Source: Paramicrobacterium fandaimingii (lineage in GTDB: Bacteria > Actinomycetota > Actinomycetes > Actinomycetales > Microbacteriaceae). Taken from it: 64,000 nt of DNA. This document shows positions 33,014-49,142 of this stretch, one piece after another (positions within the stretch are counted from its first letter, which is position 1; each line of letters begins with the position of its first letter). The translations under genes and the position numbers were made by a program. Location: positions 620,001 through 684,000 of the forward strand of contig NZ_CP061170.1 in NCBI RefSeq assembly GCF_011751745.2, in the 5' to 3' direction. Under the pieces are notes generated by a model that was not told the DNA's origin, ran no database searches, and worked only from the letters and a program-made list of their open reading frames with translations.

Positions 33014-33976
33014 CTATACGATTAGCGGCGCTCTACGGCGAGATGGGTAAACCTTGGTTAGGTCAAGTGGTTGTGGCAAATTAGCCATCTCCTCAAGTAT
33101 ACCGGGCCGGGAAGGACGCCAGCCTAGTTCCTTGCGTGCGCGTTCGCTGGACGCTCGCAGATTCCAGATCCAGTCCAACTCGGCAAAACGACCATTAAGC
33201 TCGCGAATGCTCCCTGGATTTACGATCTCGACATTTCCATCGAGACCGACTGCATTGCTTATTCCCACAGCGAGGTCCATATGCGGAACAGTATCTGAGA
33301 CGCCGAAGTATACCCCACGTGCTTTGGGCTCAGATACTACTAGCGAGTAAAGGTCTGCTAGATCTTCGACGTGCACGTGGGAAATGGCATTCCCTGTGCC
33401 TTCAATGCCGTAAATTGCACCGTGTTCTCGAAATGAGTCGAATAGTCTGACCGTGGGGCCAGCGCAGCCGCCCCGATGGCCGTACACCTGACCAGGGGCG
33501 ATGATCGCAGTGCGAACCTCTTGCTCCCCCAGCATCATCTTCATAATTCGGCCAAGATGCTCGTAGAAGTAGGGCGGGGAAATTGGATCCTTCTCAGTAA
33601 CTTCTCGATCGGGATCCAGTAATCCCGTATCCAGCCATACCCCGACGCCAGAAGTCCACAGATACAGCTTGTTTGATCCGCGGAGGGTGTCAAGGATAAC
33701 CTGCGATGTTCGAACGGTCGATTCGCCGGTCGTTAACGCATTCGTCAGCGCCCCTCCGAGCCACATTTGCACTACGCCGTCAGCTAGCTCAGATTGTTCC
33801 GCAATTACGCCTGCGTCGTCCATGGAGCCGCGCACAGGTGTAATACCCATAGAACGAAAGTGTTGTACCGATCTCTCGGTCCTTGCAAGACCAGTCAGCT
33901 CGTGCCCGTCCGCTAATAGGCGTGTACAAACCTCAGTGCCAACATATCCGCTTCCGCCGATAACAAACAGTTTCAT
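33014..33976 (-). CDS. NAD-dependent epimerase/dehydratase family protein
   Basis: This 320-residue protein is an extended or atypical SDR. It begins with the Rossmann motif FVIGGSGYVGTEVCTRLL and continues TERSVQHFRSMGITPVRGSM, IIAPGQVYGHRGG, and ISHVHVEDLADLY, as in NAD(P)-binding epimerase-like proteins. ATG 33976 is preceded by GGAGGA. The upstream leader contains the CATACGTATG promoter found twice more in this region, so it is probably co-regulated with the transporter and the HisD-like operon. The substrate is unknown. Confidence 0.82.
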   Translation of the reverse strand: MKLFVIGGSGYVGTEVCTRLLADGHELTGLARTERSVQHFRSMGITPVRGSMDDAGVIAEQSELADGVVQMWLGGALTNALTTGESTVRTSQVILDTLRGSNKLYLWTSGVGVWLDTGLLDPDREVTEKDPISPPYFYEHLGRIMKMMLGEQEVRTAIIAPGQVYGHRGGCAGPTVRLFDSFREHGAIYGIEGTGNAISHVHVEDLADLYSLVVSEPKARGVYFGVSDTVPHMDLAVGISNAVGLDGNVEIVNPGSIRELNGRFAELDWIWNLRASSERARKELGWRPSRPGILEEMANLPQPLDLTKVYPSRRRAPLIV

Positions 33977-34064
33977 CTGTCCTCCAATAGGTAGCAATTT
34001 CATCTTTGTGATTCGCGGAGCGACGCGGGGTGTAGATGTCACCCTTGTCCGCTTCTTCTCTTTG

Positions 34065-34107
34065 AATCGGGATGGGTAAAGAATCACGCATACGTATGTG
34101 AATGTCA
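34065..34107 (-). promoter_or_regulatory. CATACGTATG promoter, copy 1 (epimerase gene)
   Basis: Read on the minus strand, a perfect -35 TTGACA (34102-34107) is followed after four bases by the palindrome CATACGTATG (34088-34097) and then GATTCTTTACCC. Spacing and order match copies 2 and 3. The homology continues past the promoter as a decayed copy of the hisD leader (about 34020-34065) before the epimerase start. Confidence 0.75.
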
Positions 34108-34189
34108 AGAGCCCGAATTGACCCGTCTAGCACCTCCGCTTGTGCGAGGTCATTGTCTCAAGTGGGGATTTCCGGTTCGGTGTGTCGTT

Positions 34190-34440
34190 GCCTCAGGATA
34201 GGGCCTTCGCGTGAGCACCATAGCGGGTGGAGCTGTCGATGAGGTAACGCAAGGCAGTGACGAAGAAGAAGGCCCTGGCCTACTGGGGCGCGGACCGGGC
34301 TGGAAAGACCTGGATCCTGGATGAGCTGGTGGACCTGACCGGCTGGCACGCGGCTACGCCAGGGCGGCGTTACGGGATGCGCTCGTTGTCTGTGTGTGAT
34401 CAACTATTTGTAGGCCGGGCCCTGCCCCCGAGAGTTGTCA
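34190..34440 (+). pseudogene. Decayed ISNCY-type (integrase-like) transposase fragment
   Basis: The plus strand reads KALAYWGADRAGKTWILDEL then VDLTGWHA, which resembles the N-terminal part of ISNCY-family transposases (RAEKTVILDELCALTGWHRD pattern). An upstream in-frame stop (TAA in the stretch encoding ELSMR) and a frameshift just after GWHA, beyond which YARAALRDAL appears in another frame, show it is dead. The rest of the element is missing. Confidence 0.6.
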
Positions 34441-34466
34441 ACGTCGGCTGAATTTTGACCCTTTAT

Positions 34467-35751
34467 CGTCGGGCGAGTTCTAGGGTGGATTCCAGTTGTC
34501 GTCGCAACAGCGGTCTGGTTTCATCATGGCATGGAATCGTGAAAGAGCTCCGCCGGGGTTGACCAGTTGAGCGTTTTTCGAGGACGGCTATTGAGTCGGT
34601 CGGCGACACGTTGAAGCTCCGTTGGGCTATGGACGCCGAGGTCGCTGCCCTTGGGGAAGTATTGCCGCAGGAGGCCGTTTGTGTTCTCATTCGAGCCGCG
34701 TTGCCAGGGGCTTGCTGCTTCAGCGAAGTAGACGCCGTCGGAGAAGAGATGGGCGAGCCGATCATGGGACGCCATCTCCGATCCTTGGTCCCACGTCAGC
34801 GTTAGTCGCTTCTCCCGAGGCAGGCGGATCAGTTGAGTCTGCATCGCGCGTGTGAGGGCTTCGGCATCGTGTCTGTCAGGCAGGTGGATGAGCTGCACGA
34901 AACGGCTCGTGCGGCACACGAGCGTGCCGATCGCGGACTTGTTCAGCCGCCCCGTGCTCAAGTCTCCTTCCCAGTCTCCGAGCCGGACACGGTCCTCCAC
35001 GGCAGGCGGACGCTGACCGATCAGCAGGGCCGGGGCGATGAACCGTGGCGTGCGTGCGTGTGCTCGACGGCGGCGTTTGCGCATCGGCCTGCCGGTGCGC
35101 AGTTTCCGCGTCAGTACGCGGCTTAGCCCGCTTCGACCCGGATGGTAGAGACCCTGATACATCGTCTCATGACAAATATGCCATGACGGCGTATCGGGGA
35201 ACGCAGCTCGCAGATGCGCGGCAATCTGCTCCGGACTCCACTCCAGATTCAGCTTCTCCTGCACCACCGTTGCCAGGGCAGGATCCTTCATCAGCCGGCC
35301 GCTCTCAGGCCGTCTGGAACGCTGTCCCGCTCGGGCATGAGCGACGGCTGCGTCATAGCCTCCGCGATCATGCCTAGACACGTTTCGCCGCAGTTCCCGG
35401 CTGACCGTGGACGGCGCTCTTCCCAACCGGGACGCCACCTCTCGCACCGATACGCCCTGGGCTTTCAAGACTGCGATGCGCTGTCGTTTTAGCAGTGAGA
35501 GGTAGCGGCCGGAGTGCGCCTCCTGGTCCAATCTCCTCGGCGGTAGACCACCGTTCTCCGTCCGCCACCGATATCCGGTCTTACGACCAACGCCAACTCG
35601 AGTAGCAGCCGCGACTGGAGCGATGCCACCCCGAATCAGCTCCCAAAACTCGTCTTCCAATCTCAACCGTCGCTTACACCCTCGTCTTGCCATCAACACA
35701 TCCCCAGTCTCTAGTAGAAGCGATGCGACAAGAGCTAGAACTCGCCCGACG
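34467..35751 (-). mobile_element. IS30 family insertion sequence, copy A
   Basis: A 17-bp perfect terminal inverted repeat (CGTCGGGCGAGTTCTAG at 34467-34483, reverse complement at 35735-35751) brackets a full IS30-type transposase. The element is about 1.29 kb. It separates the epimerase promoter copy from the transporter promoter copy. I could not confirm a target duplication. Confidence 0.8.
34524..35699 (-). CDS. IS30 family transposase
   Basis: This 391-residue transposase has an N-terminal HTH (SVREVASRLGRAPSTVSREL, about 83-102) and the IS30 DDE catalytic core: GDWEGDLSTG (first Asp), TLTWDQGSEM (second Asp) and SPWQRGSNENTNGLLRQY (Glu). It is full length with no visible frameshift, so copy A may be active. 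It differs clearly from the other IS30 at 41.6 kb. Confidence 0.93.
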   Translation of the reverse strand: MLMARRGCKRRLRLEDEFWELIRGGIAPVAAATRVGVGRKTGYRWRTENGGLPPRRLDQEAHSGRYLSLLKRQRIAVLKAQGVSVREVASRLGRAPSTVSRELRRNVSRHDRGGYDAAVAHARAGQRSRRPESGRLMKDPALATVVQEKLNLEWSPEQIAAHLRAAFPDTPSWHICHETMYQGLYHPGRSGLSRVLTRKLRTGRPMRKRRRRAHARTPRFIAPALLIGQRPPAVEDRVRLGDWEGDLSTGRLNKSAIGTLVCRTSRFVQLIHLPDRHDAEALTRAMQTQLIRLPREKRLTLTWDQGSEMASHDRLAHLFSDGVYFAEAASPWQRGSNENTNGLLRQYFPKGSDLGVHSPTELQRVADRLNSRPRKTLNWSTPAELFHDSMP

Positions 35752-35857
35752 CCACGGGGTCACCTGCGGCGCTTTAGCCCTGCCCCATTGCCGGAGGAAA
35801 GTATTTGAAGCAACGGATGAACCTACAAGGAAATTCTTGGCGAGGTAACATCGGCCC

Positions 35858-35890
35858 TTGACTTTCACATACGTATGCGCGATTCTTAAA
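35858..35890 (+). promoter_or_regulatory. CATACGTATG promoter, copy 2 (transporter operon)
   Basis: TTGACT (35858-35863) is followed by TTCA and CATACGTATG (35868-35877), then CGCGATTCTTAAATCA. A ribosome site AAGGAGG follows at 35903-35909. The palindrome has a CG centre as LacI-family operators do. It would drive the transporter genes through the hisD remnant. Confidence 0.75.
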
Positions 35891-35913
35891 TCATCACGAT
35901 TCAAGGAGGAAAA

Positions 35914-36039
35914 GTGGTCGAATACATCAAGCCGTCGGCATCGACGATGGGCGAGAATGCGCGATGCGCGGCGACCGTTCGTTTGTCGGTCGAGGTTGAC
36001 GATACCGAAATCAAGGAGCGTGGCGAAGCGTTCCACTAA
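35914..36039 (+). pseudogene. 5' fragment of a HisD-like gene
   Basis: The stretch after AAGGAGGAAAA starts GTG and reads VVEYIKPSAS, AATVRLSVEVDDTEIKERGE, then stops. It matches the first 40 or so residues of the HisD-like protein at 45719 (VVKYIKSPTSTTDDNTQRAA, TVRSTVEG, IKERGDEAV). Only the leader and start survived, so it is a duplicated promoter piece now placed ahead of the transporter genes. Confidence 0.75.
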
Positions 36040-36225
36040 TCGTACGGCACAGGTCTCTGCTGCCTCTAGCGTACCTATCGGCTAAATCAGCAGTTCCTAG
36101 TGGGCTTCTATTCGGCACGCGATTCGCGTTAGAACGGTGCGTGCCACTCCCAACTCACCGTGTCGCATGACGCTGTAGTTGCCCAAACGAAACCTCGACA
36201 ATCTGTAGATCACATTAGGGAAATC

Positions 36226-37374
36226 ATGTCAAACTACCGTAGCTCTAGACGATACAAGCGACTTGGGCAACCGAACTGCAATCCTCAGCAGAAGGTTCAC
36301 AAACTGCTTGGTACACCTGTACGGCTTCTGGCTGCTGGAATGGTGCTCGCCCTCAGCGCATGCGCTGGCCCGGGCACGGATCAGTCCCCCGACTCAGTGG
36401 GCCAACTCTCAGACGCCGAAGACCCCTTGGCACCGTTCCCTCTCGAAGAGGAGACAACCGTGACGTTTGGGGTTCCGCAAATGCTCGCATCGCTCGCCAC
36501 TCTGTTCGTTGCGGACTCAATGGGGGAGTTCAAGAAAGAGAACCTGAACGTCGAGATTGAAACGGTTCCCCCTGACTCTATCCCACTCATGCTGGAAAAA
36601 GGAGAACTGGATGTAGGAGTGATTAGCGTCACGCCTAATGTGCTCAACATGCTTAACGAGGACATGGGAATCCGAATAACTATGCCTACTGCTATTGATG
36701 ATCCCAGAAGTGGTTGGTATATAAATAAGTCTCTTCTTGACGCTGATGGCAATATCGAGAGTAGTGGAACTTCGGGTTTGTCAGTTGCAACTTACGTCGG
36801 CGACAAAACTGGGGTTGTCGGGTACTTTACAGAATGGGTACAAACGCATGGTGATCCGGAATTCCAGGCAACAGATCCGGAGTACAAACAACTACCGCAA
36901 GCTAATTCGATGGTAGGAATGCAGAATGGCTCAGTCGATGCAGCATATCTATCGCCTCCGTTCAGTCAAGAGGTAACAAAAAGCGGGTGCTGTGTCCAAT
37001 TGGAAGATGCAATCCCGGAGGGTATGGGGACCGCCTTCTATGGATTCGGGCCAAATCTCCGTACCGAGCGTCCGGACGTCGGACAAGCTGTAGTGCGCGC
37101 GATGGCGCGCACTAATGCGGAGCATCTGCAAGATGGCTATACCGAAGATACAGAAATAGTAGACATACTAGTTTCTGAACTTAGCATGCCAACAGAAGTC
37201 GTCGAGAACCTTGGATATACGTTTGATCCCAAGCTCACTCTTCGCACCGGGTATCTAGACGTTTCGCAAGAACATTTTATGTCGATTGGTATGCTGCGCT
37301 ATTCAGATCCCTTGAGCGATGAAGTCATCTTCGATAGATCCTTCGTCGATCGCCTAAACCCTGGAGGCGAGTAG
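36226..37374 (+). CDS. TauA/SsuA-type ABC transporter substrate-binding lipoprotein
   Basis: This 382-residue lipoprotein has a lipobox LSACAG near residue 45 and the fold of NMT1/TauA/SsuA-like binding proteins (TVTFGVPQMLASLATLFVAD, GELDVGVISVTPNVLN, GSVDAAYLSPPFSQE). ATG 36226 follows AGGG, and the upstream frame lacks a better start. GC is clearly lower than the genome average here. With the next two genes it forms a complete importer for a small anion such as a sulfonate, taurine-like compound or thiamine-precursor analogue; the ligand is not determinable. Confidence 0.85.
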   Translation: MSNYRSSRRYKRLGQPNCNPQQKVHKLLGTPVRLLAAGMVLALSACAGPGTDQSPDSVGQLSDAEDPLAPFPLEEETTVTFGVPQMLASLATLFVADSMGEFKKENLNVEIETVPPDSIPLMLEKGELDVGVISVTPNVLNMLNEDMGIRITMPTAIDDPRSGWYINKSLLDADGNIESSGTSGLSVATYVGDKTGVVGYFTEWVQTHGDPEFQATDPEYKQLPQANSMVGMQNGSVDAAYLSPPFSQEVTKSGCCVQLEDAIPEGMGTAFYGFGPNLRTERPDVGQAVVRAMARTNAEHLQDGYTEDTEIVDILVSELSMPTEVVENLGYTFDPKLTLRTGYLDVSQEHFMSIGMLRYSDPLSDEVIFDRSFVDRLNPGGE

Positions 37375-37445
37375 AAAGTGCGCTGCAAATCGATTAGCCA
37401 AAAGGGTACTGGTGTGTCACTTCGGCTCAAGATCGGAGGGTCACA

Positions 37446-38270
37446 ATGCCTAAAACTTTGAACGGCACGAACACAGAAGCAACCGTGAACACGAAAATTG
37501 ATTGCAGGAATGTGCGTCGGGAGTTTATTGCGGGCAAGACGGTAGTCCAAGCTCTCGGCCCTCTTAACCTGCAAGTGGCGCAAGGGGAGTTTGTATGCCT
37601 CGTTGGGCCGTCTGGTTGTGGTAAATCTACGCTACTTCGGATAATTGCTGGATTGCTGAATCCTTCGGATGGCGAAGTTAGGTTAGCCCATGAACATGTA
37701 GAGCACCCGTTGCTGTCAGTGGTGTTCCAGGATTACAGTATTTACCCCTGGAAAACTGTTAAGAACAACGTCCGTCTGGGTCTAAAAATATCTGGTGTGT
37801 CTGCTGTCGAGGCTGACAACCGAGTGTCCTACTGGTTGGACAAACTGCACTTAACGAGATTCGCGGATTCCTATCCGGGTACCCTTTCTGGCGGCATGCG
37901 GCAGCGAGTGTCAATTGCGCGTGCATTGGTGTTGTCGCCGGAGAACATTCTCATGGATGAACCATTCGCGGCATTGGACGCGCAGTTGCGAAAGCTGATG
38001 CAGGATGAACTCCTTAACATCTGGCAAGAAGACAAGCGCACTGTGTTATTCGTGACGCATAATCTCGATGAAGCAATCTTACTCGGTGATCGTGTTGTCG
38101 TGATGGGCGCGGCGCCAGGGCGAGTGATCGCGGAGTTCAAGGTTCCGTTCGAACGGCCAAGGAATTCTGACTTGCGTAACGACCCCGCTTTCTCTGCACT
38201 TGAGGGAGAGATATGGGCGTGCTTGAGAGACGAGGTCGGCACCGGACTGCAAGTTAAAACTGGAGGCTAG
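37446..38270 (+). CDS. Nitrate/sulfonate/taurine-type ABC transporter ATP-binding protein
   Basis: This 274-residue ATPase has Walker A VGPSGCGKST (53-62), Q-loop VVFQDYSIYPWKTV, signature LSGGMRQR, Walker B ILMDEPFAALD and H-loop FVTHNLDEAI. The sequence is of the SsuB/TauB/NrtC type. GGAGGG lies upstream of the ATG. It is 71 bases after the binding-protein gene and 2 bases before the permease gene. Confidence 0.9.
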   Translation: MPKTLNGTNTEATVNTKIDCRNVRREFIAGKTVVQALGPLNLQVAQGEFVCLVGPSGCGKSTLLRIIAGLLNPSDGEVRLAHEHVEHPLLSVVFQDYSIYPWKTVKNNVRLGLKISGVSAVEADNRVSYWLDKLHLTRFADSYPGTLSGGMRQRVSIARALVLSPENILMDEPFAALDAQLRKLMQDELLNIWQEDKRTVLFVTHNLDEAILLGDRVVVMGAAPGRVIAEFKVPFERPRNSDLRNDPAFSALEGEIWACLRDEVGTGLQVKTGG

Positions 38271-38272
38271 CC

Positions 38273-39196
38273 GTGGGTCGGAAATCGAGCACTGCAAATG
38301 GCCACGGTTATGGGCACGCTGGAGAAAGCGGGATGGAAATGAGCAGCCATGCATCATCAGTTGTGAGCCAGCATGTCGTAACGAGAAAGCCTGGCTTTGC
38401 GCAACGGCGACCGGCCGAACACGCACGTCGAAGGCGTGTTACCGATCGCATATTGATGATAGCGACGCCCATTCTCCTTTTATGCTTATGGCAAGCGGCG
38501 TCGGTTAGCGGTTTGGTTGATAGACGTTTTTGGCCAGCTCCAACCGACATCGGAGTAGCATTCGTCGAGAATATAGAGTCCGGGGTACTAATTTCCGAAG
38601 CAGCGATCTCTCTTAGGCGAATACTCACGGGCTTTGCTTGCGGTACCGCGCTCGGTGTCGTAATCGGCTTGTTGCTGGGGACGGTTCGAACACTACGGGT
38701 AGCTTTTTATCCGATTATTGGCGCTTTGTACACCGTGCCCAAGATCGCCATAATTCCGTTGCTGTTACTGCTATTCGGCCTGGGTGAAGCACCCAAACTG
38801 GTTTTGATTAGCGCGGGCGTATTCTTCATAGTTGTGATTAGTTGCGTAGCCGCAGTTACTGGCGTCTCAAGTAGTTACCTCGAGCCTGTGAGAACGTTCA
38901 ATGCGTCCTTCATGCAGAGGTTGTGCCACGTCGTGATCCCTGCGGCTCTTCCTGAACTATTTATCGCTTTTAGGCTTGCGATGGGTCAGGCGGTACTTCT
39001 GACCATCGGCATTGAGATAATCCAGAGCTCGGATGGTCTCGGATTTATGATCTGGAACGCTTGGGAGTTGTACCTGACCAGCCTCATGTATGTAGGAATA
39101 GTCTTCGTGTCGCTGCTGGGCGTCGTTCTACAGGGCTCCGTCACGTTCGTGGGTAACCGGATAATGCCGTGGAGAAGGACAATCTCGAACCATTGA
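38273..39196 (+). CDS. Nitrate/sulfonate/taurine-type ABC transporter permease
   Basis: This 307-residue permease has six membrane helices and a binding-protein-dependent transport motif near AALPELFIAFRLAMGQAVLL. The N-terminal 55 residues are basic and polar, longer than in most SsuC/TauC proteins. GTG 38273 overlaps almost directly with the ATPase stop; internal ATGs at 38333 and 38339 are alternatives. It completes the three-gene importer. Confidence 0.88.
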   Translation: MGRKSSTANGHGYGHAGESGMEMSSHASSVVSQHVVTRKPGFAQRRPAEHARRRRVTDRILMIATPILLLCLWQAASVSGLVDRRFWPAPTDIGVAFVENIESGVLISEAAISLRRILTGFACGTALGVVIGLLLGTVRTLRVAFYPIIGALYTVPKIAIIPLLLLLFGLGEAPKLVLISAGVFFIVVISCVAAVTGVSSSYLEPVRTFNASFMQRLCHVVIPAALPELFIAFRLAMGQAVLLTIGIEIIQSSDGLGFMIWNAWELYLTSLMYVGIVFVSLLGVVLQGSVTFVGNRIMPWRRTISNH

Positions 39197-39200
39197 ACGG

Positions 39201-39392
39201 TTGACCCTCGACGGTGAGCGACCTGACGGACCTTACTGGACCCCGGCGAAGGACGATGCGTTATTCGCGCCTAAGAAGCGGCGGAGAGTGGGAATTGGTG
39301 ATCTCTGGATGGTGAGCGGCGGTATTCGACCATCACAATCAAGTTTTATCGAAGTCAAGGACATGGAAGGAAAACTATGCAACACTCTGTAG
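39201..39392 (+). CDS. Doubtful 63-residue reading frame between permease and NTF2 genes
   Basis: This frame starts with TTG 4 bases after the permease stop, ends inside the next gene, and contains GPYWTPAKDDALF and KKRRRVGIGDLW. It has no recognisable domain and no clear ribosome site. It may be a remnant of a larger gene or a spurious frame. I list it because it fills the operon gap. Confidence 0.25.
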   Translation: MTLDGERPDGPYWTPAKDDALFAPKKRRRVGIGDLWMVSGGIRPSQSSFIEVKDMEGKLCNTL

Positions 39393-40273
39393 TTGGGACG
39401 CGCGAGAACCTCGACAAAGTTAGGGACTTCTTTCGTCGGAAGCATGTTAACGATCGTTGGGACTTGTTCTCCGATAACGTGTTGATCCGACATCCGTTCG
39501 GCGGCCGCGTGTCATCTCGCTCAGTATGGTACGGGAAGCATGAGGTTGGGTTACTGGAACGTATGATCCAGCACGAGTTTCGCTCGATCACGTATCACGA
39601 TTTAGACATTCACGAATGTTCGGACGGTGCTAATTTTTGGGTTCTTGCGCGGACTCGAGAAGATTCTATTTCGTCGAACGGGAAGCCATACTATCAGCGC
39701 TTCGTTCATCATTTCACATTTGAGGAGGGGTTGATTGCCCGGTGGGATGAGTATTTTGATGCACTGGCACTGAGAAGTTTAAGGACCGGAGAGAAACCCG
39801 TAGAGTTCGGAAACCTGCGCGAATTGCGGCCTGAAGTTGAAACGGCTTCAGTGGGTTCCGAAGAATCGAGAGAGGAAAACCTGTCCGTTGTACGCCAATT
39901 CTTGGACGGGGATCCATATCATCCGGATACGCGGTTGCCGCATTGGGCACCTGACGCAATAAAGGAACTAGCTTGGACGCCGCCTTCTTGGCCAGTTACT
40001 TCTAGCTTCAGCGGTGAAGAATTGCTTGGCGAAACACGCAATGGGAGCGCGGTCTTCGGGAAGTGCATTCATCGGGATGTGGAGCTGTATCCAACTTTGG
40101 ATCCATGTGTGTTCTTCGCGACGAGTCGCATGGATAACGCAGCTACGTTCAGAGGAGAGCTCTATCCTCAGTCATTTGTTCTCGTGTTGAGGGTCGAGCG
40201 CGGAAAGGTGAAGATCTTGCGCGAGTATTTTGATACTGCACTCATAGAGCGATGGGGTCCAACGCTGGATTAG
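39377..40273 (+). CDS. Tandem NTF2-like (SnoaL/PhzA-B type) protein
   Basis: This 298-residue protein contains two copies of an NTF2-like fold (about 1-145 and 160-298). Each has the helical start, WDLFSDNVLIRHPFGG or PDTRLPHWAPDAIKELAWTP, and a conserved end such as RWDEYFDALAL or ILREYFDTALIERWG, the latter resembling PhzA/PhzB proteins. NTF2-like enzymes are isomerases, dehydratases or hydrolases of small cyclic or aromatic molecules, so it may act on the transported compound. GGAAGGAAAA precedes the ATG. Its role is inferred from context. Confidence 0.72.
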   Translation: MQHSVVGTRENLDKVRDFFRRKHVNDRWDLFSDNVLIRHPFGGRVSSRSVWYGKHEVGLLERMIQHEFRSITYHDLDIHECSDGANFWVLARTREDSISSNGKPYYQRFVHHFTFEEGLIARWDEYFDALALRSLRTGEKPVEFGNLRELRPEVETASVGSEESREENLSVVRQFLDGDPYHPDTRLPHWAPDAIKELAWTPPSWPVTSSFSGEELLGETRNGSAVFGKCIHRDVELYPTLDPCVFFATSRMDNAATFRGELYPQSFVLVLRVERGKVKILREYFDTALIERWGPTLD

Positions 40274-40455
40274 TAGCCGAGGCGGCCCTAACTTACCCAG
40301 TCTCCCGTCTTGAGACGGGACACCACTTGAGCCGACTAGTTTAGCCTCGATCCGATGATGAACTCCAAATGAGGGGCAGATTTTGAGGGGCTCAGTCGCT
40401 GAGCAGATAGGACTCTTCTCCAACCCTCGGCTGCCTGGTCGCTGTTTGTCCCACG

Positions 40456-40752
40456 TTATATGGTAAACCGTTCTAGGTTCTGTGCCGTTTCTATACGGGG
40501 AGCGGCACAGAACCTAGAACGGTTCAGGTTCGGGAACATGCCCAGCAGATGCGTTCTCGCGTATCGGATCCACCGTGTCTCGGAATCGAAATGCAACAGA
40601 TGCTGGGCCACGACCAGGCACAGCAGTTCCGCATCGCTCAACGCGCGACGTCGCCCCGGCCCGGATTGCTCCGACAAGCCGAGCCGGGGCAGCACGACAT
40701 CATCGAGAAAGACGTAAAGTGTGGTCAGGAGAGTGTTTAGTTTGTTGTTCAC
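40456..40752 (-). pseudogene. N-terminal fragment of an IS982 family transposase
   Basis: The first 80 or so residues (NKLNTLLTTLYVFLDDVVL, ALSDAELLCLVVAQHLLHFD, RWIRYARTHLLGMFP) match the N-terminal region of IS982 transposases. The catalytic domain is absent: the frame runs into a 22-bp inverted repeat and ends. It is a truncated remnant. Confidence 0.75.
40466..40524. repeat. Perfect 22-bp inverted repeat
   Basis: Bases 40466-40487 (AACCGTTCTAGGTTCTGTGC then CG) are the exact reverse complement of 40503-40524, with a 15-base loop. It replaces the missing part of the IS982 transposase. It may represent two element ends brought together, or a fold-back end. Confidence 0.8.
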
Positions 40753-41584
40753 ACCAAAGACTTAACACTCTCCGCCAACGTTTAACAGCACCCAAGGGGA
40801 CTATCCCATAAACGGTGTATCCGGCGTTTTCTTTTAGCAGTTTTCAGCGGCTGGAAATCGGTCGCTGAAGGTGATGGCGAATGGGTTGAAAGCAGGCTTC
40901 CAGCGCATCGTCCATCGGGTCCTGCCGGCACCGGTCGGATCGAGCGATCGGGTGACCAGTTACAAGCACTTTAGCGCGGCCTGCTCGGTGGGGAAAAGCC
41001 CACGGGCTTTAACCGCGCGCCGGTACCTGGCGTTGAGCGATTCGATGGCGTTGGTCGAGCAGATGAACTGGCGGATCTCCACGTCGTAGTCCAGGAACGG
41101 GATGAACTCTTCCCACGCGTTCTGCCAAAGCCTGATGATGGCGCCGTTTTTCTAGCCCCACCGTTCCGCGAGCTCCTCAACCGCCACGCGGGGAGCGGTG
41201 GCGTTCACGGCGGTATAGATGGGCTTCACGTCCCGTTTGAGCGCGTCCCAGTCCTTCTTCGAGGCCAGACGGAACGTGTTACGGATCAAGTGGGTAATAC
41301 AGGTTTGAACCGTCGTCAGCGGCCAAACATTGGAGACTACCTCGGGCAGGCCTTTGGATCCGTTGCAGACGAGGAAAAGGTGTCCTTGACGCCGCGGTTC
41401 TTAATATCGGTCAGCACGTTCATCCAGAACTTCGCGCCCTCACCACCGGTGCCGGCCCAGAGCCCGAGGATATCTTTCTCCCCGGCCAGAGTGACGCCAA
41501 TAGCGGCGTAGATCGGTCGGTTGGTGACTTGCCCGTCGCGGATCTTGACCACGATCGCATTGATGAAGATCGCGGCGTAGATCT

Positions 41585-42815
41585 GACGGTTTCTAACCAT
41601 CGTTGCGAATCTCTTCTGAAGGGAGATTCTGATGGTGCGTTGGGCATGGAATAAGTCGTCTGGTGACGTGAAACGCCGATACTTTGAAATGATTAGGCAG
41701 GGTTCCAGCGGGTCAGCCGCGGCAGTGGCTGTCGGAGTGTCGTTGAGCTGCGGGTCGAAGTGGTTCGTTGACGCTGGAAGCGTGACATTCATCGACACGC
41801 CGATCAGTAGCCGTTATCTGAATCAGGACGACCGAATCGAGATCGCCGATGGTTTGGCGGCGAAGGAGCCGATAAAACAGATCGCTGCCCGTATCGGTAA
41901 GAGCTATCAGAGCGTGTATCGAGAGATCGCTCGCCATCGTCGACCAAACGGCCGGTATCAGCCGTGGCATGCGCATGGCCAAGCCTGGGAAGCGAGGCGG
42001 CGGGATCGTCCTCGTCGATTCGACGAGGACGAAGATCTGCGCGAGATCGTGGCCGAGAAGCTGAAGGAGAAGTGGTCGCCGCAGCAGATCAGCCGATGGC
42101 TGCGGCGCCGATGGCCGAAGCGCGAAACCTGGCATGTATGCGCTGAAACGATCTACGAGGGCATCTACCGGGGCCTGATCGTCGCGAGGGACGAAAGCGC
42201 CCTGCGCACGGGGCGTGTTTATCGTCATAAGCGGGGCCGGGGACGAACCCGTGATGGTGCGCTCAAGCAATGCACGAATATGAAGTCGATACATGACCGG
42301 CCGAAAACAGTCGAGAAGCGTCGCCAAGTGGGGCATTGGGAAGGCGACCTGATCGTCGGAAAAGGACAGCAATCCGCCATCGCCACGCTCGTCGAGCGAA
42401 AGACCCGACACACCATCCTCGTCCCGTTGGCATCAGGACACACGGCCACAAGAGTCGCCGAGGCCCTGACACGAGTATTCGCCGGGCTTCCGCGGAAGAT
42501 TCGGCGCACCCTCACCTGGGATCAAGGCAACGAAATGTTCCAGCACGAGCGCGTGGAAACAGACACTGGAGTCCAGATCTACTTCGCCGATCCGCACTCT
42601 CCCTGGCAACGCGGCACGAACGAGAACACGAACGGGCTCCTACGGCAGTATTTCCCCAAGGGAACAGACCTTCACCAGTACACCGAGCAGCGGCTAAACG
42701 ACGTCGCCGCAGAGCTCAACGCCAGACCCCGGCTCACCCTCAAAGACCGCACCCCAGCACAGCTCATGAGACGCTGGATAAAACAACCAATTCGCAACGA
42801 TGGCTAGAAACCGTC
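41585..42815 (+). mobile_element. IS30 family insertion sequence, copy B, inside IS256
   Basis: A 26-bp terminal inverted repeat with one mismatch (GACGGTTTCTAACCATCGTT start at 41585; mirrored end at 42790-42815) brackets a complete transposase. The flanking triplet TCT (41582-41584 and 42816-42818) is a 3-bp target duplication, as expected for IS30. Confidence 0.92.
41632..42807 (+). CDS. IS30 family transposase
   Basis: This 391-residue transposase shows the IS30 pattern: HTH region IKQIAARIGKSYQSVYREIA, catalytic GHWEGDLIVGKG (Asp), TLTWDQGNEMFQH (Asp) and HSPWQRGTNENTNGLLRQYF (Glu). It is intact and faces opposite to the interrupted IS256 transposase. Clean ends and target duplication suggest a fairly recent insertion. 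Confidence 0.93.
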   Translation: MVRWAWNKSSGDVKRRYFEMIRQGSSGSAAAVAVGVSLSCGSKWFVDAGSVTFIDTPISSRYLNQDDRIEIADGLAAKEPIKQIAARIGKSYQSVYREIARHRRPNGRYQPWHAHGQAWEARRRDRPRRFDEDEDLREIVAEKLKEKWSPQQISRWLRRRWPKRETWHVCAETIYEGIYRGLIVARDESALRTGRVYRHKRGRGRTRDGALKQCTNMKSIHDRPKTVEKRRQVGHWEGDLIVGKGQQSAIATLVERKTRHTILVPLASGHTATRVAEALTRVFAGLPRKIRRTLTWDQGNEMFQHERVETDTGVQIYFADPHSPWQRGTNENTNGLLRQYFPKGTDLHQYTEQRLNDVAAELNARPRLTLKDRTPAQLMRRWIKQPIRNDG

Positions 42816-43437
42816 TCTCGTCGAGGGGCCGGTTCTGCCAGGCGTTCATCTCCTCGATAACCTTGTCGGTGATCCGACTAATGGTCTCCCTCGAAACGGA
42901 CGCTCCATAGATCTCGGTGAAGTGCGAGCTGATTTCCCCGGTCGTTAATCCCGTCGCGTAGAGCGAGAGGACCATCTCATCGACCCCGGTCAACCGGCAC
43001 TGACTCTTCTTGACGATCTTCGGCTCGAAAGCGCCTTCTCTGTCCCGCGGAACAGTGATTTCCATCGGTCCGGTGGTCTCCGTCAACACGGTCTTACACC
43101 GGCTACCGTTCCGCGTGTTGCCGGCCTGTTTCGCCGCGGTGTCGTGCTTCTCGTGGCCGAGGTGCTCAGTCATTTCTTCATCGAGGGCAACCTCAACCAC
43201 GGTATTCGTCAACTGCTTGAGCAGCTCATCAGGACCAGTCAGTGACAGGCCCTGCTCCTTGGCCATTCTGACTAACTCGCGGGCAGCCTCGGACTCGGAC
43301 TTATAGCTCTTCTTCTCAATGGCTTCGGTGCTTTTCACAGCATCCAGTGTTGCCGTCATACCAGCTCCTACCCGCCAAGCTCGTCGCCCGGCATGTTGGG
43401 CCGGATACACCGTTATTTCCACAGTCCCCACCCAGAG

Positions 43438-43558
43438 ACTGGGCCGCGAGGGCCGGGGAGAACACCACGACCGTCGTGAACCGGATCTTCGAGTCCGTCC
43501 CTGTCGACGAGCAGGGCCTCGGCCCTGCCCCGCCGGGCTCCGCATGACGCGCCGCTAG
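43438..43558 (+). pseudogene. C-terminal remnant of an IS21-type IstA transposase
   Basis: The short stretch encodes WAARAGENTTTVVNRIFESV then PVDEQGLGP, and RMTRR in a neighbouring frame, resembling the end of IstA proteins that precede istB. It is cut on the left by the IS256 end and lacks all catalytic parts. Confidence 0.4.
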
Positions 43559-43689
43559 TCGACAGCACGGGTCGAAGCCGCGTCGGGTGTTGCTTTTGAC
43601 CGTGTTCGGTCGCCGCGCTGCGCGCACCTACGACCCATCCTCGAAACGAAGCAGGACGACCCCGGCAACCACGACGCAGGAGGGACCCG

Positions 43690-44436
43690 ATGAGCGGGCT
43701 CGATATGGAGACGAAGCGGAAGCTGCGGGAGAGAGGCGTCTCCTCGCTCGTCGACGCGCTTGAGATCCAGGACGACACCCTCACGCTCGGGATGGTGTTC
43801 GAGCAGCGACTCCAGCTCGCCGTCGACAACGCCCACGCCGCGTTCACCCAGTGGAAGGTCGATGGCCTGATCCGACGGGCTGGGCTGCGTTACCTGAACG
43901 CGGACCTCCACCGGGTCGACATGATCGAGCAACGAGGCCTGGACAGGGGCGTGATCGCGCAGCTCGGGACCTGCCAGTTCATCACCCGGCACATGAACGT
44001 CGTGTTCCAAGGCTTCACCGGTTCCGGAAAGTCCCATCTCGGATCGGCGCTGGCCAAGCAAGCGTGTTTGCACCGCTACCGGGCACACTACATCCGCATG
44101 CCCGACCTCGAAGAGACCGGGACCGCGGCGAAGGACACGCCTACGGGCAAGGAAAAGTGATTGCGGAAGTACTCCAGGTTCACGCTCCTCGTGATCGATG
44201 AATGGCTGCTCGACCCGCCCACCAACGACGTCAGATCCATGCTGCTCGAGCTCGTATAGCGCCGCTATTACGCCATCTCCACCGTGTTCTGCACTCAATA
44301 CGCGAAGAAGGACTGGCACCAGTGCCTCGGCTCCGGAGCTCACGCCGATGCGATCATGGACCGTGTCGTCCACAACACCCTCTGGATCGAAACCGGCGAC
44401 GTCAACATGCGCGAACACACCGCCACGACGAGCTGA
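43690..44436 (+). pseudogene. IstB-like ATPase of an IS21 element, two nonsense codons
   Basis: The frame begins MSGLDMETKRKLRERGVSSL and contains the Walker A FTGSGKSHLGSALAKQA. TGA at 44158-44160 and TAG at 44257-44259 interrupt it, after which the same frame continues through LLVIDEW, STVFCTQYAKKDWHQ and ADAIMDRVVHNTLWIETGD to the normal IstB end. It is therefore a complete but inactivated IS21 helper gene. Confidence 0.85.
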
Positions 44437-44469
44437 GCCCAGCCGGTGAGCACCGCTCCTGGAGGGGGT

Positions 44470-44513
44470 GGTGCTCACCCGCAATATCGGCTGGTGCTCA
44501 CACTCAATATCCG
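44470..44513. repeat. IS21-type terminal direct repeats
   Basis: GGTGCTCAC-C/A-C-G/T-CAATATC occurs twice in tandem (44470-44490 and 44493-44513), with a further inverted GGTGAGCACC at 44446-44455. Multiple short repeats at the ends are typical of IS21 elements, and this is the end beyond istB. Confidence 0.6.
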
Positions 44514-44609
44514 ATGTTGCTGAAACTCTATACTCGATGGTGCCCAGAGGTTCGAATACTCAATCAAGCAAAACCTCTGCAATCCCCAACGTGCTTACTG
44601 GGCGGGGCA

Positions 44610-45590
44610 TCAGGGCCTGAGCAGCCGCCGTCGCACGATGGATGTGTCCAATGTCACTGTGCGGTACGGCAGGTGGGGTTCGGCGAGACGGCTCAGGAGC
44701 AGCTCGACGGCAGTTCTTGCCATGCGCGAAATATCACTGTGCACGGTTGTGAGATTGTAGACGCGCCATTTCGCGCTTGAAATGTCGTCATACCCGACGA
44801 GCATCGTCTTATGCGATGCTCCGGATTCAAGGAGCGCGTCCGTCGCGCCGAAAGCAAGCACATCGTTCGCGCAGAAGATTGCCGTGGGAGAAACCCGTGA
44901 CACGAGACGAGTCGCGGCGGAGTAGCCGACATCGAACGTGAACTCGCCTCGTTCCACGTGATCGTCGGGCATCCCAATTCCAGCACGACGCAATCCTTCT
45001 CGGAAGCCCGTGTCGCGCTCCTCGCCTGTGCTTGTGTCGTTCGGGCCCATGATCGCCGCTATCTGGGTATGTCCGAGCTCGGCGAGGAGCCGTGCAGCAG
45101 ACTCGGCGCCGGCGAGGTTGTCGCTCACGCAGCGGTCGGCTTCGACCCCGGAGATCGCGCGATTCACGAAGACGAAGGGTATCCGGTGGCGGCGCAAGCC
45201 TGCCGCCACGTGAGACCCTTCACGCGCCGTCGCGAGGATCATCCCGTCGAACACACCTCGCGCCCAGCGATCGGGGTCGAATGGTTCGTCGGGCGAGTCG
45301 GGGATAAGGACGGGGCGGTATCCTGCGGCGAGAAGCGATTCCCTGATCGGCTCAACGAGCTCTGGGTAAAACGGGTTGGTGAGTTCTCCGCTGAGAATCC
45401 CTATGGATCCCGTACGGCGGGTGGAAAGAGCACGCCCAGCGTCGCTAGGCACGTAGGACAGCGATTCTGCCGCCTCGAGAACTCGCCGCCGCGTATCGGC
45501 AGAGATTCCAGGCGCGCCGCGAAGTGCCCGCGATACGGTCGACTGATTGACGCCCGCGAGCTGGGCGACATCGTGGCTCGTAACGTTCAT
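44610..45590 (-). CDS. LacI family transcriptional regulator
   Basis: This 326-residue repressor-type regulator has the N-terminal HTH SHDVAQLAGVNQSTVSRALR and hinge helix VPSDAGRALSTRRTG, followed by a periplasmic-binding-like ligand domain (IGILSGELTNPFYPELVEPI, FCANDVLAFGATDAL). It diverges from the HisD-like gene across 128 bases containing CATACGTATG, a CG-centred palindrome of the kind LacI proteins bind. I infer it controls the three operons carrying that palindrome and itself. ATG 45590 is preferred to an in-frame start at 45626. Confidence 0.9.
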   Translation of the reverse strand: MNVTSHDVAQLAGVNQSTVSRALRGAPGISADTRRRVLEAAESLSYVPSDAGRALSTRRTGSIGILSGELTNPFYPELVEPIRESLLAAGYRPVLIPDSPDEPFDPDRWARGVFDGMILATAREGSHVAAGLRRHRIPFVFVNRAISGVEADRCVSDNLAGAESAARLLAELGHTQIAAIMGPNDTSTGEERDTGFREGLRRAGIGMPDDHVERGEFTFDVGYSAATRLVSRVSPTAIFCANDVLAFGATDALLESGASHKTMLVGYDDISSAKWRVYNLTTVHSDISRMARTAVELLLSRLAEPHLPYRTVTLDTSIVRRRLLRP

Positions 45591-45662
45591 TGAAGTCTCG
45601 TCTCTGTGGGTTGGATCCTGAGGCACAGATGCATGATTCGCGCTCCACGATATCAGCGACCC

Positions 45663-45699
45663 TTGACTTTCGCATACGTATGCCTGATTCTTTAATTAT
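45663..45699 (+). promoter_or_regulatory. CATACGTATG promoter, copy 3 (HisD-like operon)
   Basis: TTGACT (45663-45668) is followed by TTCG and CATACGTATG (45673-45682), extended to the 12-bp palindrome GCATACGTATGC, then CTGATTCTTTAATTAT as -10 region. AAGGAGG follows at 45708-45714. It lies between the divergent LacI gene and the HisD-like gene. Confidence 0.8.
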
Positions 45700-45718
45700 C
45701 ACGTATCAAGGAGGAACA

Positions 45719-47053
45719 GTGGTCAAGTACATCAAGTCGCCGACATCGACGACAGACGACAACACGCAGCGTGCCGCAACTGTCCGTTCAACGGTCGAGG
45801 GCGTCATCGCCGATATCAAAGAGCGTGGTGACGAGGCAGTCCGCGAGTACTCGGAGAAGTTTGACTCGTGGACACCTGAGTCGTTCCGACTGAGCGACGA
45901 GAAGATCGCTGAGATCATCGCGACGGTTCCTCAGCAGGTTCTCGACGACATCCGCGAGGTGCAGCAGAATGTGCGCAACTTCGCACAGCACCAGCTTGAG
46001 TCACTGCACGATTTTGAAGTCGAGACACAGCCGGGTGTGTTCCTTGGTCAAAAGAACATCCCTGTCTCTGCTGTTGGAACGTATATTCCCGGGGGCCGGT
46101 ATCCCCTGCTCGCGTCCGCTCACATGACCATCCTCACGGCCAAGGTCGCTGGCGTCCCGCGTGTGGCAGCTGCAACTCCGCCGATCCGCGGCGAAATTCC
46201 CGCGGCAACGGTTGCGGCAATGAGCCTGGCGGGCGCAGACGAGATCTATCTGCTCGGCGGGGTGCAGGCAATCGCAGCTCTTGGGCTCGGTACCGAAACG
46301 ATCGGAAAGGTCGACCTGATCGCCGGGCCCGGCAACGCGTTCGTCGCCGAGGCCAAACGGCAACTGTTTGGCAGCATCGGGATCGATCTGCTCGCTGGCC
46401 CAACCGAGACGCTCATCGTTGCTGACGAGCAGGCCGATCCGTTCGTCGTCGCTGTTGATCTGTTGTCTCAAGCAGAGCACGGCCCCGACTCACCCGCTGT
46501 TCTCGTCACCAACTCTGAGGAGCTTGGGAACGCGGTATCGCAGCACATCGACGAGTTGTTGCCGGGGATGCCCACTCGCGACTTCGCAGAGGTTGCATGG
46601 CGTGATTACGGCCAGATCCTCGTTACGGACACAATTGACGAGGCGTATGAAGTGGCAGACTCGTTCGCCAGCGAACACGTGCAGATCCTGACCAGTAAAC
46701 CGCGTGCGGCTCTCGAGGCGATGCACAACTTCGGTGCGCTGTTCCTCGGCGAAGGAACCGGTGTTTCGTACGGAGATAAGGTCATCGGCACGAACCACAC
46801 GCTTCCCACGAAGGGGGCGGCGCGCTACACCGGAGGTCTCTGGGTGGGCAAGTTCCTGAAGACCGTTACCTATCAGGAAGTGACATCGACCGAGGCGAGC
46901 GCGAACCTGGGAGCGCTTCTCGGACGTGCCGCGCGCGCTGAATCGTTCGAGGGGCATGCCCGATCTGGAGACGTTCGCGTCGCGAAGTACACCGGCGCTC
47001 CGATTGACTGGATTCCGGAAGGCGCGCTGACGGCGTCCGCCGGTACTCTGTGA
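45719..47053 (+). CDS. HisD-family dehydrogenase, HpsN (sulfopropanediol 3-dehydrogenase)-like
   Basis: This 444-residue NAD-dependent dehydrogenase has the histidinol-dehydrogenase core: YIPGGRYPLLASAHM, LIAGPGNAFVAEAKR, SQAEHGPDS (metal Gln and His), ASEHVQI (catalytic Glu-His), YGDKVIGTNHTLPTKGA (metal Asp), and FEGHARS (metal His). The block GAARYTGGLWVGKFLKTVTY is typical of the HpsN branch, which oxidises 2,3-dihydroxypropane-1-sulfonate, and not of biosynthetic HisD; no his genes are nearby. GTG 45719 follows GGAGG. It should oxidise an alcohol twice to a carboxylate, but the substrate remains inferred. Confidence 0.85.
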   Translation: MVKYIKSPTSTTDDNTQRAATVRSTVEGVIADIKERGDEAVREYSEKFDSWTPESFRLSDEKIAEIIATVPQQVLDDIREVQQNVRNFAQHQLESLHDFEVETQPGVFLGQKNIPVSAVGTYIPGGRYPLLASAHMTILTAKVAGVPRVAAATPPIRGEIPAATVAAMSLAGADEIYLLGGVQAIAALGLGTETIGKVDLIAGPGNAFVAEAKRQLFGSIGIDLLAGPTETLIVADEQADPFVVAVDLLSQAEHGPDSPAVLVTNSEELGNAVSQHIDELLPGMPTRDFAEVAWRDYGQILVTDTIDEAYEVADSFASEHVQILTSKPRAALEAMHNFGALFLGEGTGVSYGDKVIGTNHTLPTKGAARYTGGLWVGKFLKTVTYQEVTSTEASANLGALLGRAARAESFEGHARSGDVRVAKYTGAPIDWIPEGALTASAGTL

Positions 47054-47085
47054 CGATCGGTCTTGGCTAAAAGGAGAGCTGAACT

Positions 47086-48054
47086 ATGACAACGGAACAT
47101 CGTGAGATCACCTTCGAGTTGTTCCATGAGCTGTATAAGTCGTGTTCCAATTGGGGGCGGTGGGGCGAGGACGATCAGCGGGGAACGCTGAATCACATCA
47201 CTCCCGACGTGATTCAGAATGCAGCGACGCTCGTACGCAGCGGTAAGGCAATATCTCTCCAGCTCCCGCTGGACGGCAACGGGCCCCAAACCGGTGCATT
47301 CGGTCGGGTCAACCCCGTGCACCAGATGGTTGCCACAGGAACAGACCACCTCGCTCACACCCAGACGTACAGCAGCGACCCGCTGGGGTGGGGGTTTGCC
47401 GATGACAGTCTGTTCCTGTTCCTTCAGGGGGGTACCCAGTGGGATGCGCTTGGCCACATTTTCCGTGACGGTGTGATGTACAACGGGTTCGGCGCTGAGG
47501 AAGTCACGGCCACGGGAGCCAAAAAGGGCGGTGTCGAGAACTTCCCCACCGTCGTGTCTCGAGGCGTCCTGCTCGATATCCCGCGGGTGAAAGGCCGTGA
47601 CCATCTCGAGCCAGGGGAGGCGATTTACCCGGAGGATCTCGACGAGGCATGCGAGAAGCTCGGTGTGAGCGTGAAGCGCGGAGACGTCGTCTTGATTCGT
47701 ACGGGCGATATGAAGGCGCGCAAAGATCTTCCCGAATGGGGTGGGTACTCGGCCGGAGACTCGCCTGGCCTTTCGCTCTCGTGCGCTCAGTGGATACACG
47801 ACAAGAACATTGCCGCTCTTGCGACAGACACGTGGGGCGCCGAGGTGCGGCCCAACGAACTGCCCGATACCTTCCAACCGCTTCATCTGATCATGCTGGT
47901 GTCGATGGGTCTGCTCGTTGGTGAGATCTGGCAGCTTGATGACCTGGCGGACGACTGTGCCGCAGACGGAATATACGAGTTCATGTTCGTTGGTCCCCCG
48001 TTGCACGTACCGGGCGCCGTTGGGTCGCCACTGAATCCGCAGGCGATCAAATGA
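47086..48054 (+). CDS. Cyclase family protein (PF04199, kynurenine-formamidase-like)
   Basis: This 322-residue protein has the PF04199 metal-binding signature in the GGTQWDALGHIFRDG form, where Asp and His bind the metal, plus LLDIPRVKGRDHLEPGEAIY and the C-terminal FMFVGPPLHVPGAVGSPLNP. The family hydrolyses cyclic amides, formamides or lactones or acts as small-molecule cyclases. AAAGGAGAG precedes the ATG, and the gene overlaps the following SDR by 4 bases. It is the middle gene of the HisD-like operon. Confidence 0.85.
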   Translation: MTTEHREITFELFHELYKSCSNWGRWGEDDQRGTLNHITPDVIQNAATLVRSGKAISLQLPLDGNGPQTGAFGRVNPVHQMVATGTDHLAHTQTYSSDPLGWGFADDSLFLFLQGGTQWDALGHIFRDGVMYNGFGAEEVTATGAKKGGVENFPTVVSRGVLLDIPRVKGRDHLEPGEAIYPEDLDEACEKLGVSVKRGDVVLIRTGDMKARKDLPEWGGYSAGDSPGLSLSCAQWIHDKNIAALATDTWGAEVRPNELPDTFQPLHLIMLVSMGLLVGEIWQLDDLADDCAADGIYEFMFVGPPLHVPGAVGSPLNPQAIK

Positions 48055-48821
48055 TCTCGCCCGAGCACCCTCCTCTTCCCCCGGCCTCCCTGGCGGGCAA
48101 AGAAGCATATGTGACTGGCGGGGGAGGGGATATCGGCCGGGCCAGCGCCATTGCGCTGGCCCGCGCCGGGGCCCACGTGCACCTCATTGGCCGTACAGCC
48201 GAGCGACTTATGGATGCTGCCTCAGAAATCGACGCGTTCGGTGGTCGCGCTTCAACTCTTCAGCTTGATGTCACGGATGCCGCTGCCGTTGAAGAGACTT
48301 TCGGGGCAGCCTCTGTTGACGTGCTCGTCAACTCAGCGGGGACCAATATCCCGCAGCTGCTCGATGATGTGCGCCCTGCAGACTTCGATGCGCTGTTCGA
48401 TGTGAACGTCAAAGCATCATTCTTTGTCACCCAGCAGGCTGTCCGCGCCATGCGCCGCGAGCATCGGTCGGGGTCAGTGATCATGATCTCATCGCAGATG
48501 GGGCATGTGGGCGGCCCGAAGCGGGCACTTTACTGCGGAACAAAATGGGCCATTGAAGGAATGACCCGCGCCCTTGCTCTTGAGCTGGCGCCCGAGGGAA
48601 TCCGCGTGAACACTGTCGCCCCCACCTTCGTTGAGACCGAGATGACCCGCGCGTACCTCGAAGACCCCGAGTTCAAAGACTTTGTCTTAGGCAGCATCCC
48701 GATGGGAATGATGGCGCGGCCGGACGACGTCGCCGGAGCCGTGAGATTCCTCGCCGAGGACGCCTCTCGGATGATCACGGGGACATCAATTCGAGTCGAC
48801 GGCGGGTGGACGGCGCAATAG
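48051..48821 (+). CDS. SDR family oxidoreductase
   Basis: This 256-residue classical short-chain dehydrogenase has the NAD(P) motif TGGGGDIGRASAIALA, NSAGTN, catalytic Ser in ISSQMGHV, and YCGTK (Tyr-x-x-x-Lys), ending with GTSIRVDGGWTAQ. It should oxidise or reduce a secondary alcohol or ketone. It is the last gene of the HisD-like/cyclase operon and overlaps the cyclase stop. Confidence 0.92.
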   Translation: MISPEHPPLPPASLAGKEAYVTGGGGDIGRASAIALARAGAHVHLIGRTAERLMDAASEIDAFGGRASTLQLDVTDAAAVEETFGAASVDVLVNSAGTNIPQLLDDVRPADFDALFDVNVKASFFVTQQAVRAMRREHRSGSVIMISSQMGHVGGPKRALYCGTKWAIEGMTRALALELAPEGIRVNTVAPTFVETEMTRAYLEDPEFKDFVLGSIPMGMMARPDDVAGAVRFLAEDASRMITGTSIRVDGGWTAQ

Positions 48822-49069: not shown

Positions 49070-49142
49070 AGGGCGGTGGCTCAATTGGTAGAGCAGCGGT
49101 CTCCAAAACCGCAGGTTGCAGGTTCGAGTCCTGTCCGCCCTG
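49070..49142 (+). tRNA. tRNA-Trp (CCA)
   Basis: AGGGCGG (49070-49076) pairs with CCGCCCT (49135-49141). The anticodon loop CTCCAAA gives CCA, and the T arm GCAGG-TTCGAGT-CCTGT is intact. Its location just ahead of secE is conserved in actinobacteria. Confidence 0.95.

What the first reader, a model, noticed from the sequence alone, without database searches (positions are those of the whole stretch)
33977..45719. Three copies of a CATACGTATG promoter define one regulon
The same -35 box, spacing, palindrome and GATTCTT region precede the epimerase gene (minus strand), the ABC transporter operon and the HisD-like operon. The LacI gene diverges from copy 3. A CG-centred palindrome between -35 and -10 is a typical LacI repressor site, so one regulator probably silences all three.
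Basis: partly seen in the sequence, partly recalled or inferred. Interest (0 to 1): 0.78.

Follow-up and report, generated by a model that had tools for sequence, protein, structure and literature searches.

The report
Private LacI regulon of an island
Three near-identical promoters with the same repressor-type palindrome probably switch a block of acquired metabolic genes together, and one of them still carries a broken piece of the gene it was copied from.

Summary
CATACGTATG occurs three times in the 3.62-Mb genome, all in this window, each in a 17-nt spacer between TTGAC(A/T) and GATTCT; allowing 3 mismatches finds no fourth such promoter. The divergent LacI is the only one of the genome's 27 LacI proteins in the clade of LacIs found near those orthologues. 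Two corrections. The three promoters are homologous DNA: copy 2 carries a 41-codon stub of the HisD-like gene and lies 352 bp before the ABC operon; copy 1 keeps the leader with a degraded ribosome site and start codon. And the whole set lies in a ~16-kb island beside tRNA-Trp, missing at this place in 4 of 4 congeners. Best reading: a local repressor controlling an acquired catabolic island, extended by promoter duplication. Binding, repression and substrate are unproven; the HisD-like enzyme lacks the histidine that marks sulfopropanediol dehydrogenases.

The parts
34080..34108 (-). Copy 1: -35 TTGACA (34108-34103), operator CATACGTATG (34098-34089), -10 GATTCT (34085-34080); before the epimerase-like gene
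34049..34079 (-). Leader of copy 1, homologous to the leaders of copies 2 and 3; where they have AAGGAGG and GTG it has AAAGAGA and GCG
   Evidence: 20 of 27 bases match copy 2 (0 of 100,000 shuffles), 17 of 27 match copy 3 (16 of 100,000 shuffles)
33014..33973 (-). NAD-dependent epimerase/dehydratase-like gene; start codon 125 bp from the start of the palindrome
   Evidence: PF01370; 12 relatives at 51-54% and one at 32% besides itself; distance
34456..35762 (-). IS30-type insertion sequence between the divergent copies 1 and 2, with 28-bp inverted ends
   Evidence: PF13936 and PF00665; ends
35858..35886 (+). Copy 2: -35 TTGACT, operator 35868-35877, -10 GATTCT
35914..36039 (+). Stub of the HisD-like gene: GTG, 41 codons, TAA; 20 of the first 38 residues as in the intact gene
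   Evidence: tblastn of the HisD-like protein E 1e-5 here
36229..40273 (+). ABC operon: binding protein (36229-37374, start codon uncertain), ATPase (37446-38270), permease (38273-39196), SnoaL-like protein (39377-40273)
   Evidence: no terminator-like site listed between copy 2 and 36229
44610..45590 (-). LacI-family regulator, divergent from copy 3; recognition segment GVNQSTVSR
   Evidence: PF00356 and Peripla_BP_3; tree
45663..45691 (+). Copy 3: -35 TTGACT, operator 45673-45682, -10 GATTCT; 83 bp from the lacI start
45719..48821 (+). HisD-like dehydrogenase (45719-47053), cyclase (47086-48054) and short-chain dehydrogenase (48051-48821)
   Evidence: PF00815, PF04199, PF13561
32612..48913 (.). 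Island that holds the LacI gene, all three promoters and their genes
   Evidence: Absent at this place in 4 of 4 congeners with both flanks aligned (the four break points vary by about 50 bases on the left); partly low GC; insertion sequences; tRNA-Trp at 49070. No integrase or attachment sites were looked for

Best explanation
CATACGTATG is the operator of the divergently encoded LacI-family repressor. Bound in the promoter spacer, the repressor would keep RNA polymerase from using the -35/-10 pair; an unknown inducer, probably a substrate or intermediate of the HisD-like pathway, would release it. It controls the HisD-like operon (copy 3), the epimerase-like gene (copy 1) and, less certainly, the ABC operon (copy 2), and possibly its own gene. 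All targets lie in one acquired island of about 16 kb. The three promoters descend from one: promoter, leader and (at copy 2) the first ~40 codons of the HisD-like gene were duplicated in front of other genes, leaving a gene stub at copy 2 and a decayed leader at copy 1, while -35, operator and -10 were kept. Shown by sequence: the sites and their uniqueness, homology of the copies, the footprint in other species, the LacI clade, the island. Inferred: binding, repression, inducer, readthrough from copy 2 into the ABC genes, and that copy 3 was the source.
For: Only three such sites in the genome and one promoter frame. YATACGTATR upstream of HisD-like orthologues 25 times in 25,459 bp against 12 times in 1,589,330 bp elsewhere; 10 of 13 other palindromes tested had no upstream hit, the other three 1, 2 and 3. 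Long perfect forms such as TTTGCATACGTATGCAAA (Bacillota) and TGTATACGTATACA (Arthrobacter and others). In unnamed relative G053, CATACGTATG lies between lacI and the HisD-like gene and CATACGTATA lies before an ABC binding-protein gene. Our LacI is the only one of 27 in the genome that joins 53 of the 55 LacIs from HisD-like loci, support 100/99; 47 of the 55 have Q at the first variable recognition position after VS (VSQ), as ours has (VNQ). Homology of copies. Island.
Against: No binding or expression data. No YATACGTATR within 300 bp upstream in 8 of 17 actinobacterial, 14 of 26 Bacillota and 42 of 42 other loci. The site in copies 1 and 2 is a perfect palindrome over 10 nt only (one search counts 3 mismatches to TGCATACGTATGCA for copies 1 and 2, 2 for copy 3), shorter than the usual LacI operator of 16-22 nt (PMC4052901, passages). 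The LacIs in the tree were picked by similarity to ours, which favours their grouping. Copy 2 is 352 bp from the ABC operon. GATTCT is a weak -10. Two other LacIs of the genome also have Q at that recognition position (L149, L150), though they fall elsewhere in the tree.
Confidence: 0.75

Rival explanations
1. LacI acts at copy 3 only. Copies 1 and 2 are relics of duplication: their operators persist by recent descent, and the epimerase gene and the ABC operon are read from other promoters or not at all.
For: Copy 2 is followed by a dead-end stub and lies 352 bp from the ABC operon. Copy 1 has a degraded ribosome site and start in its old leader. Homology explains their likeness without selection.
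Against: Between copies 2 and 3 the 29-nt promoter is kept better (26 of 29) than leader (22 of 27) or stub (81 of 114), and copy 1 keeps 27 of 29 promoter bases but 20 of 27 leader bases of copy 2; small numbers. In relatives the site also stands before transporter genes (G053; L047 and L087, MFS).
Confidence: 0.17
2. The palindromes are alike only because they were copied along with the DNA and have no regulatory role at all.
For: The copies are homologous over far more than the palindrome, so their likeness alone proves nothing.
Against: The same palindrome stands before orthologous genes in Bacillota and in several actinobacterial families.
Confidence: 0.03
3. A different regulator binds, for example another LacI paralogue, or the LacI activates instead of repressing.
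For: The genome has 27 LacI-family proteins, and two others also carry Q at the same recognition position.
Against: Those two group elsewhere; only the neighbouring LacI groups with LacIs of HisD-like loci. A site between -35 and -10 suits repression (inference).
Confidence: 0.05

Closest known systems
Local LacI-family regulons (comparative survey PMC4052901; passages seen)
   Same: A local repressor beside its operon, even CG-centred palindromic site, site 30-140 bp before the start codon for copies 1 and 3, catabolic enzymes with transporters
   Different: No regulon with this operator or with a HisD-like dehydrogenase appeared in my searches (listings only); most of the surveyed LacI regulators control sugar use, here the substrate is unknown; the extra sites arose by duplication of promoter plus gene start
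HpsN, (R)-sulfopropanediol 3-dehydrogenase (hps cluster of Cupriavidus pinatubonensis, PMC11382572; passages seen)
   Same: Closest solved relative of the HisD-like protein (8v35, E 7e-112); clusters of both hold further oxidoreductases and transport genes
   Different: GRYPL instead of the HpsN motif GRY[A/S]H: the sulfonate-binding His126 is a leucine here
Histidinol dehydrogenase HisD (PF00815)
   Same: Same Pfam family, E 6e-141
   Different: GRYPL, not the GSAPL reported for HisD; scores higher against HpsN than against any solved HisD; no other histidine gene was seen among the neighbouring genes named

Membership tests
LacI-family regulator | LacI-type N-terminal HTH and periplasmic-binding-type sensor domain | tested here: met
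   PF00356 and Peripla_BP_3, both over their cut-offs
LacI-family regulator | Even palindromic operator with central CG | tested here: met
   CATACGTATG, conserved before orthologous genes; only 10 nt are perfect in copies 1 and 2, 12 nt in copy 3
LacI-family regulator | Binds the operator and is released by a small molecule | not testable with these tools
   needs protein
One regulon for all three promoters | Shared site not found at unrelated promoters of the genome | tested here: met
   3 of 3 places in the genome are these
One regulon for all three promoters | Each site placed to control its gene | tested here: inconclusive
   Copy 3 and copy 1 yes (37 and 125 bp); copy 2 is 37-46 bp from a stub but 352 bp from the ABC operon
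HpsN (DHPS 3-dehydrogenase) | Motif GRY[A/S]H with the sulfonate-binding His | tested here: not met
   GRYPL
HisD (histidinol dehydrogenase) | Motif GSAPL as given for HisD in PMC11382572 | tested here: not met
   GRYPL
Genomic island | Insertion between conserved flanks, odd composition, mobile elements, tRNA edge | tested here: met
   insertion sequences
Genomic island | Integrase and attachment repeats | not tested
   not looked for

The most novel reading that the evidence does not exclude
A LacI regulon grown by copy and paste: a promoter-operator together with the first codons of its own gene was duplicated to place further genes of an acquired island under an existing repressor, leaving the gene stub as a fossil of the event; the regulon serves an undescribed catabolic pathway built on a GRYPL/GRYPM branch of HisD-like dehydrogenases found in Actinomycetota and Bacillota.
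Probability: 0.55. Interest if true: 0.5.

Novelty: new member of a known kind. Interest (0 to 1): 0.4.

Why it matters
It offers a concrete operator and regulator for a widespread HisD-like dehydrogenase branch without an assigned substrate, so the inducer can be sought by a simple binding assay. It also shows, with a visible fossil, one way in which genes come under an existing repressor: by duplicating a promoter rather than evolving a site from scratch.

Tried and rejected
Chance recurrence: rejected for the full promoter arrangement, though the 10-mer count alone is near expectation. HpsN identity of the dehydrogenase: rejected on the motif; none of 89 HisD-like rows from the related loci has GR[YF][AS]H, 37 have GRYPM and 9 GRYPL at the place, and 41 rows were not resolved by the regular expression. 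Relatives of the ABC binding protein, to see whether its operon carries the site elsewhere: led nowhere (1 of 59 genomes, the own one; itself and one 24% hit among predicted proteins; 9 plasmid records at about 23-28%, not opened). Selection on the stub: differences at codon positions 1/2/3 are 9/7/17, undecided between decay and earlier constraint. Homology of copy 1 further downstream: from about 12 nt after the -10 on, the local alignment with copy 2 scores 12 against a shuffle maximum of 15, so not above chance; only the leader right behind the -10 stands out. More distant operators: TGCATACGTATGCA with up to 3 mismatches has 60 places, fewer than its reversed control's 69, so no sign of a wider regulon. 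Literature: four searches listed no description of this regulon or operator; these were listings (15 of 18, 12 of 58 and 12 of 34 papers shown), the library holds open-licence papers only, and of two papers (PMC11382572, PMC4052901) I saw passages. A pattern scan of viral contigs gave 29 stretches, which I did not read and which say nothing here.

Full report
Observation. CATACGTATG is present exactly three times in the window (up to 1 mismatch allowed, mean 0.5 in shuffles, 1 of 100 shuffles reached 3) and exactly three times in the 3,622,163-base genome, all here; YATACGTATR adds none. The 10-mer alone is about as frequent as composition predicts (1.2 expected; reversed control 3). The arrangement is what counts: TTGAC-N5-CATACGTATG-N3-GATTCT with up to 3 mismatches finds only these three and the reversed control none, and TTGAC-N5-CATACGTATG is in 0 of 397 other genomes of the family. 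The hexamers are 17 nt apart in all three. The -10 GATTCT is poor, and a consensus scan did not list these promoters.

The copies are related by descent. Copies 2 and 3 share 181 nt at 76% (E 7e-32 genome-wide). The shared block begins about at the -35 box (20 of 60 bases match just upstream of it) and runs through leader, ribosome site and GTG into the first ~38 codons of the HisD-like gene. At copy 2 this is a 41-codon frame that ends in TAA: a stub, with 20 of 38 residues as in the window's own HisD-like protein and a better match to it than to any HisD-like sequence from the other loci. Copy 1 shares 27 of 29 promoter bases and 20 of 27 leader bases with copy 2 (0 of 100,000 shuffles; with copy 3, 26 of 29 and 17 of 27, 16 of 100,000), but where the others have AAGGAGG and GTG it has AAAGAGA and GCG; the epimerase-like gene starts further on, 125 bp from the palindrome. 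Further downstream copy 1 shows no likeness above shuffles. So the likeness of the three promoters reflects copying and cannot by itself show joint regulation. An IS30-type element (34456-35762) now separates the divergent copies 1 and 2. That copy 3 was the source is inferred from its intact gene.

Independent evidence for the operator. HisD-like orthologues came from unnamed relatives and 80 loci of named genomes (a capped list). YATACGTATR lies within 300 bp upstream 25 times in 25,459 bp, against 12 times in the other 1,589,330 bp: in 9 of 17 loci grouped as actinobacterial, 12 of 26 Bacillota loci and 0 of 42 others. Of 13 other palindromes tested, 10 had no upstream hit and three had 1, 2 and 3. 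Long perfect forms occur: TTTGCATACGTATGCAAA in Bacillota; TGTATACGTATACA in Arthrobacter, Pseudarthrobacter, Cryobacterium and a Propionibacteriaceae MAG; GTTTACGTAAAC in two Saccharopolyspora and TGCATTCGAATGCA in three proteobacterial loci may be sister operators. In unnamed family member G053, CATACGTATG lies between lacI and the HisD-like gene, and CATACGTATA stands before an ABC binding-protein gene. The species are not independent samples (several Sporosarcina and Lysinibacillus), but the footprint spans two phyla.

The regulator. The genome has 27 LacI-family proteins. In a tree of these and 55 LacIs from the HisD-like loci, ours alone of the 27 joins 53 of the 55, support 100/99. The 55 were picked by similarity to ours and lie up to about 10 kb from the HisD-like gene, which tempers this. 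47 of the 55 have VSQ in the recognition helix (3 not resolved, 5 other); ours has VNQ; of the 27 own LacIs two more have Q there (4 not resolved), and both fall elsewhere in the tree. The survey PMC4052901 (passages) reports LacI operators as mostly even, CG-centred palindromes of 16-22 nt, over 75% of them 30-140 bp before the start codon; copies 1 and 3 fit the place, copy 2 only with respect to its stub, being 352 bp from the ABC operon. No terminator-like site was listed between copy 2 and that operon, so readthrough is possible but unproven.

Setting. Both flanks of window 32.6-48.9 kb align to 4 of 4 congeners; the stretch between does not. The four congeners also have no HisD-like match above true-hisD level and no match for the ABC binding protein. 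Part of the stretch is low in GC (51-57%), it holds insertion sequences and it ends beside tRNA-Trp. The family is probably Microbacteriaceae (inference; no call names the genome). The regulon is thus a private circuit of an acquired island.

Function. Among solved structures the HisD-like protein is nearest to HpsN, but it has GRYPL where HpsN has GRYAH with the sulfonate-binding His126, and HisD has GSAPL (PMC11382572, passages; alignment). None of 89 HisD-like rows from the related loci has the HpsN motif. The substrate is unknown. Three related loci annotated here show short-chain dehydrogenases, 3-hydroxyacyl-CoA-dehydrogenase-like proteins, permeases or ABC binding proteins nearby, as in a catabolic pathway with uptake.

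Verdict. One LacI regulator on these promoters is likely (0.75): best for copy 3, good for copy 1, weakest for copy 2. The kind of system is familiar; the traces of promoter duplication and the unassigned dehydrogenase branch are the parts worth following.

Noticed in passing
L122:3975-3984: In Devosia pacifica the palindrome (TTGCATACGTATGCC) stands before a frame with a SnoaL domain, about 6 kb from the HisD-like gene; the window's ABC operon also ends in a SnoaL-like gene.
   Followed up: partly
window 36229-37374: The ABC binding protein is nearly an orphan: itself and one 24% hit among 5.8 billion predicted proteins, 1 of 59 related genomes (its own).
   Followed up: partly
window 40466-40524: A perfect 22-nt inverted repeat with a 15-nt loop behind the ABC operon, perhaps its terminator or a mobile-element end.
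   Followed up: no
window 41632-44160: A second IS30-like element and further transposase-like and IstB-like frames between the ABC operon and lacI (names from reading the translations and likeness, not scanned).
   Followed up: no
L087:2878, 3034, 9643: In Pseudomonas sp. PD9R TTATACGTATAA-type palindromes stand before two MFS genes and 358 bp before the HisD-like gene.
   Followed up: no
L047 and L052: In Streptomyces sp. RKAG290 and Pseudarthrobacter sp. AL07 the site is not before the HisD-like gene but near lacI, a cupin gene, an MFS gene or a peptidase-like gene.
   Followed up: partly
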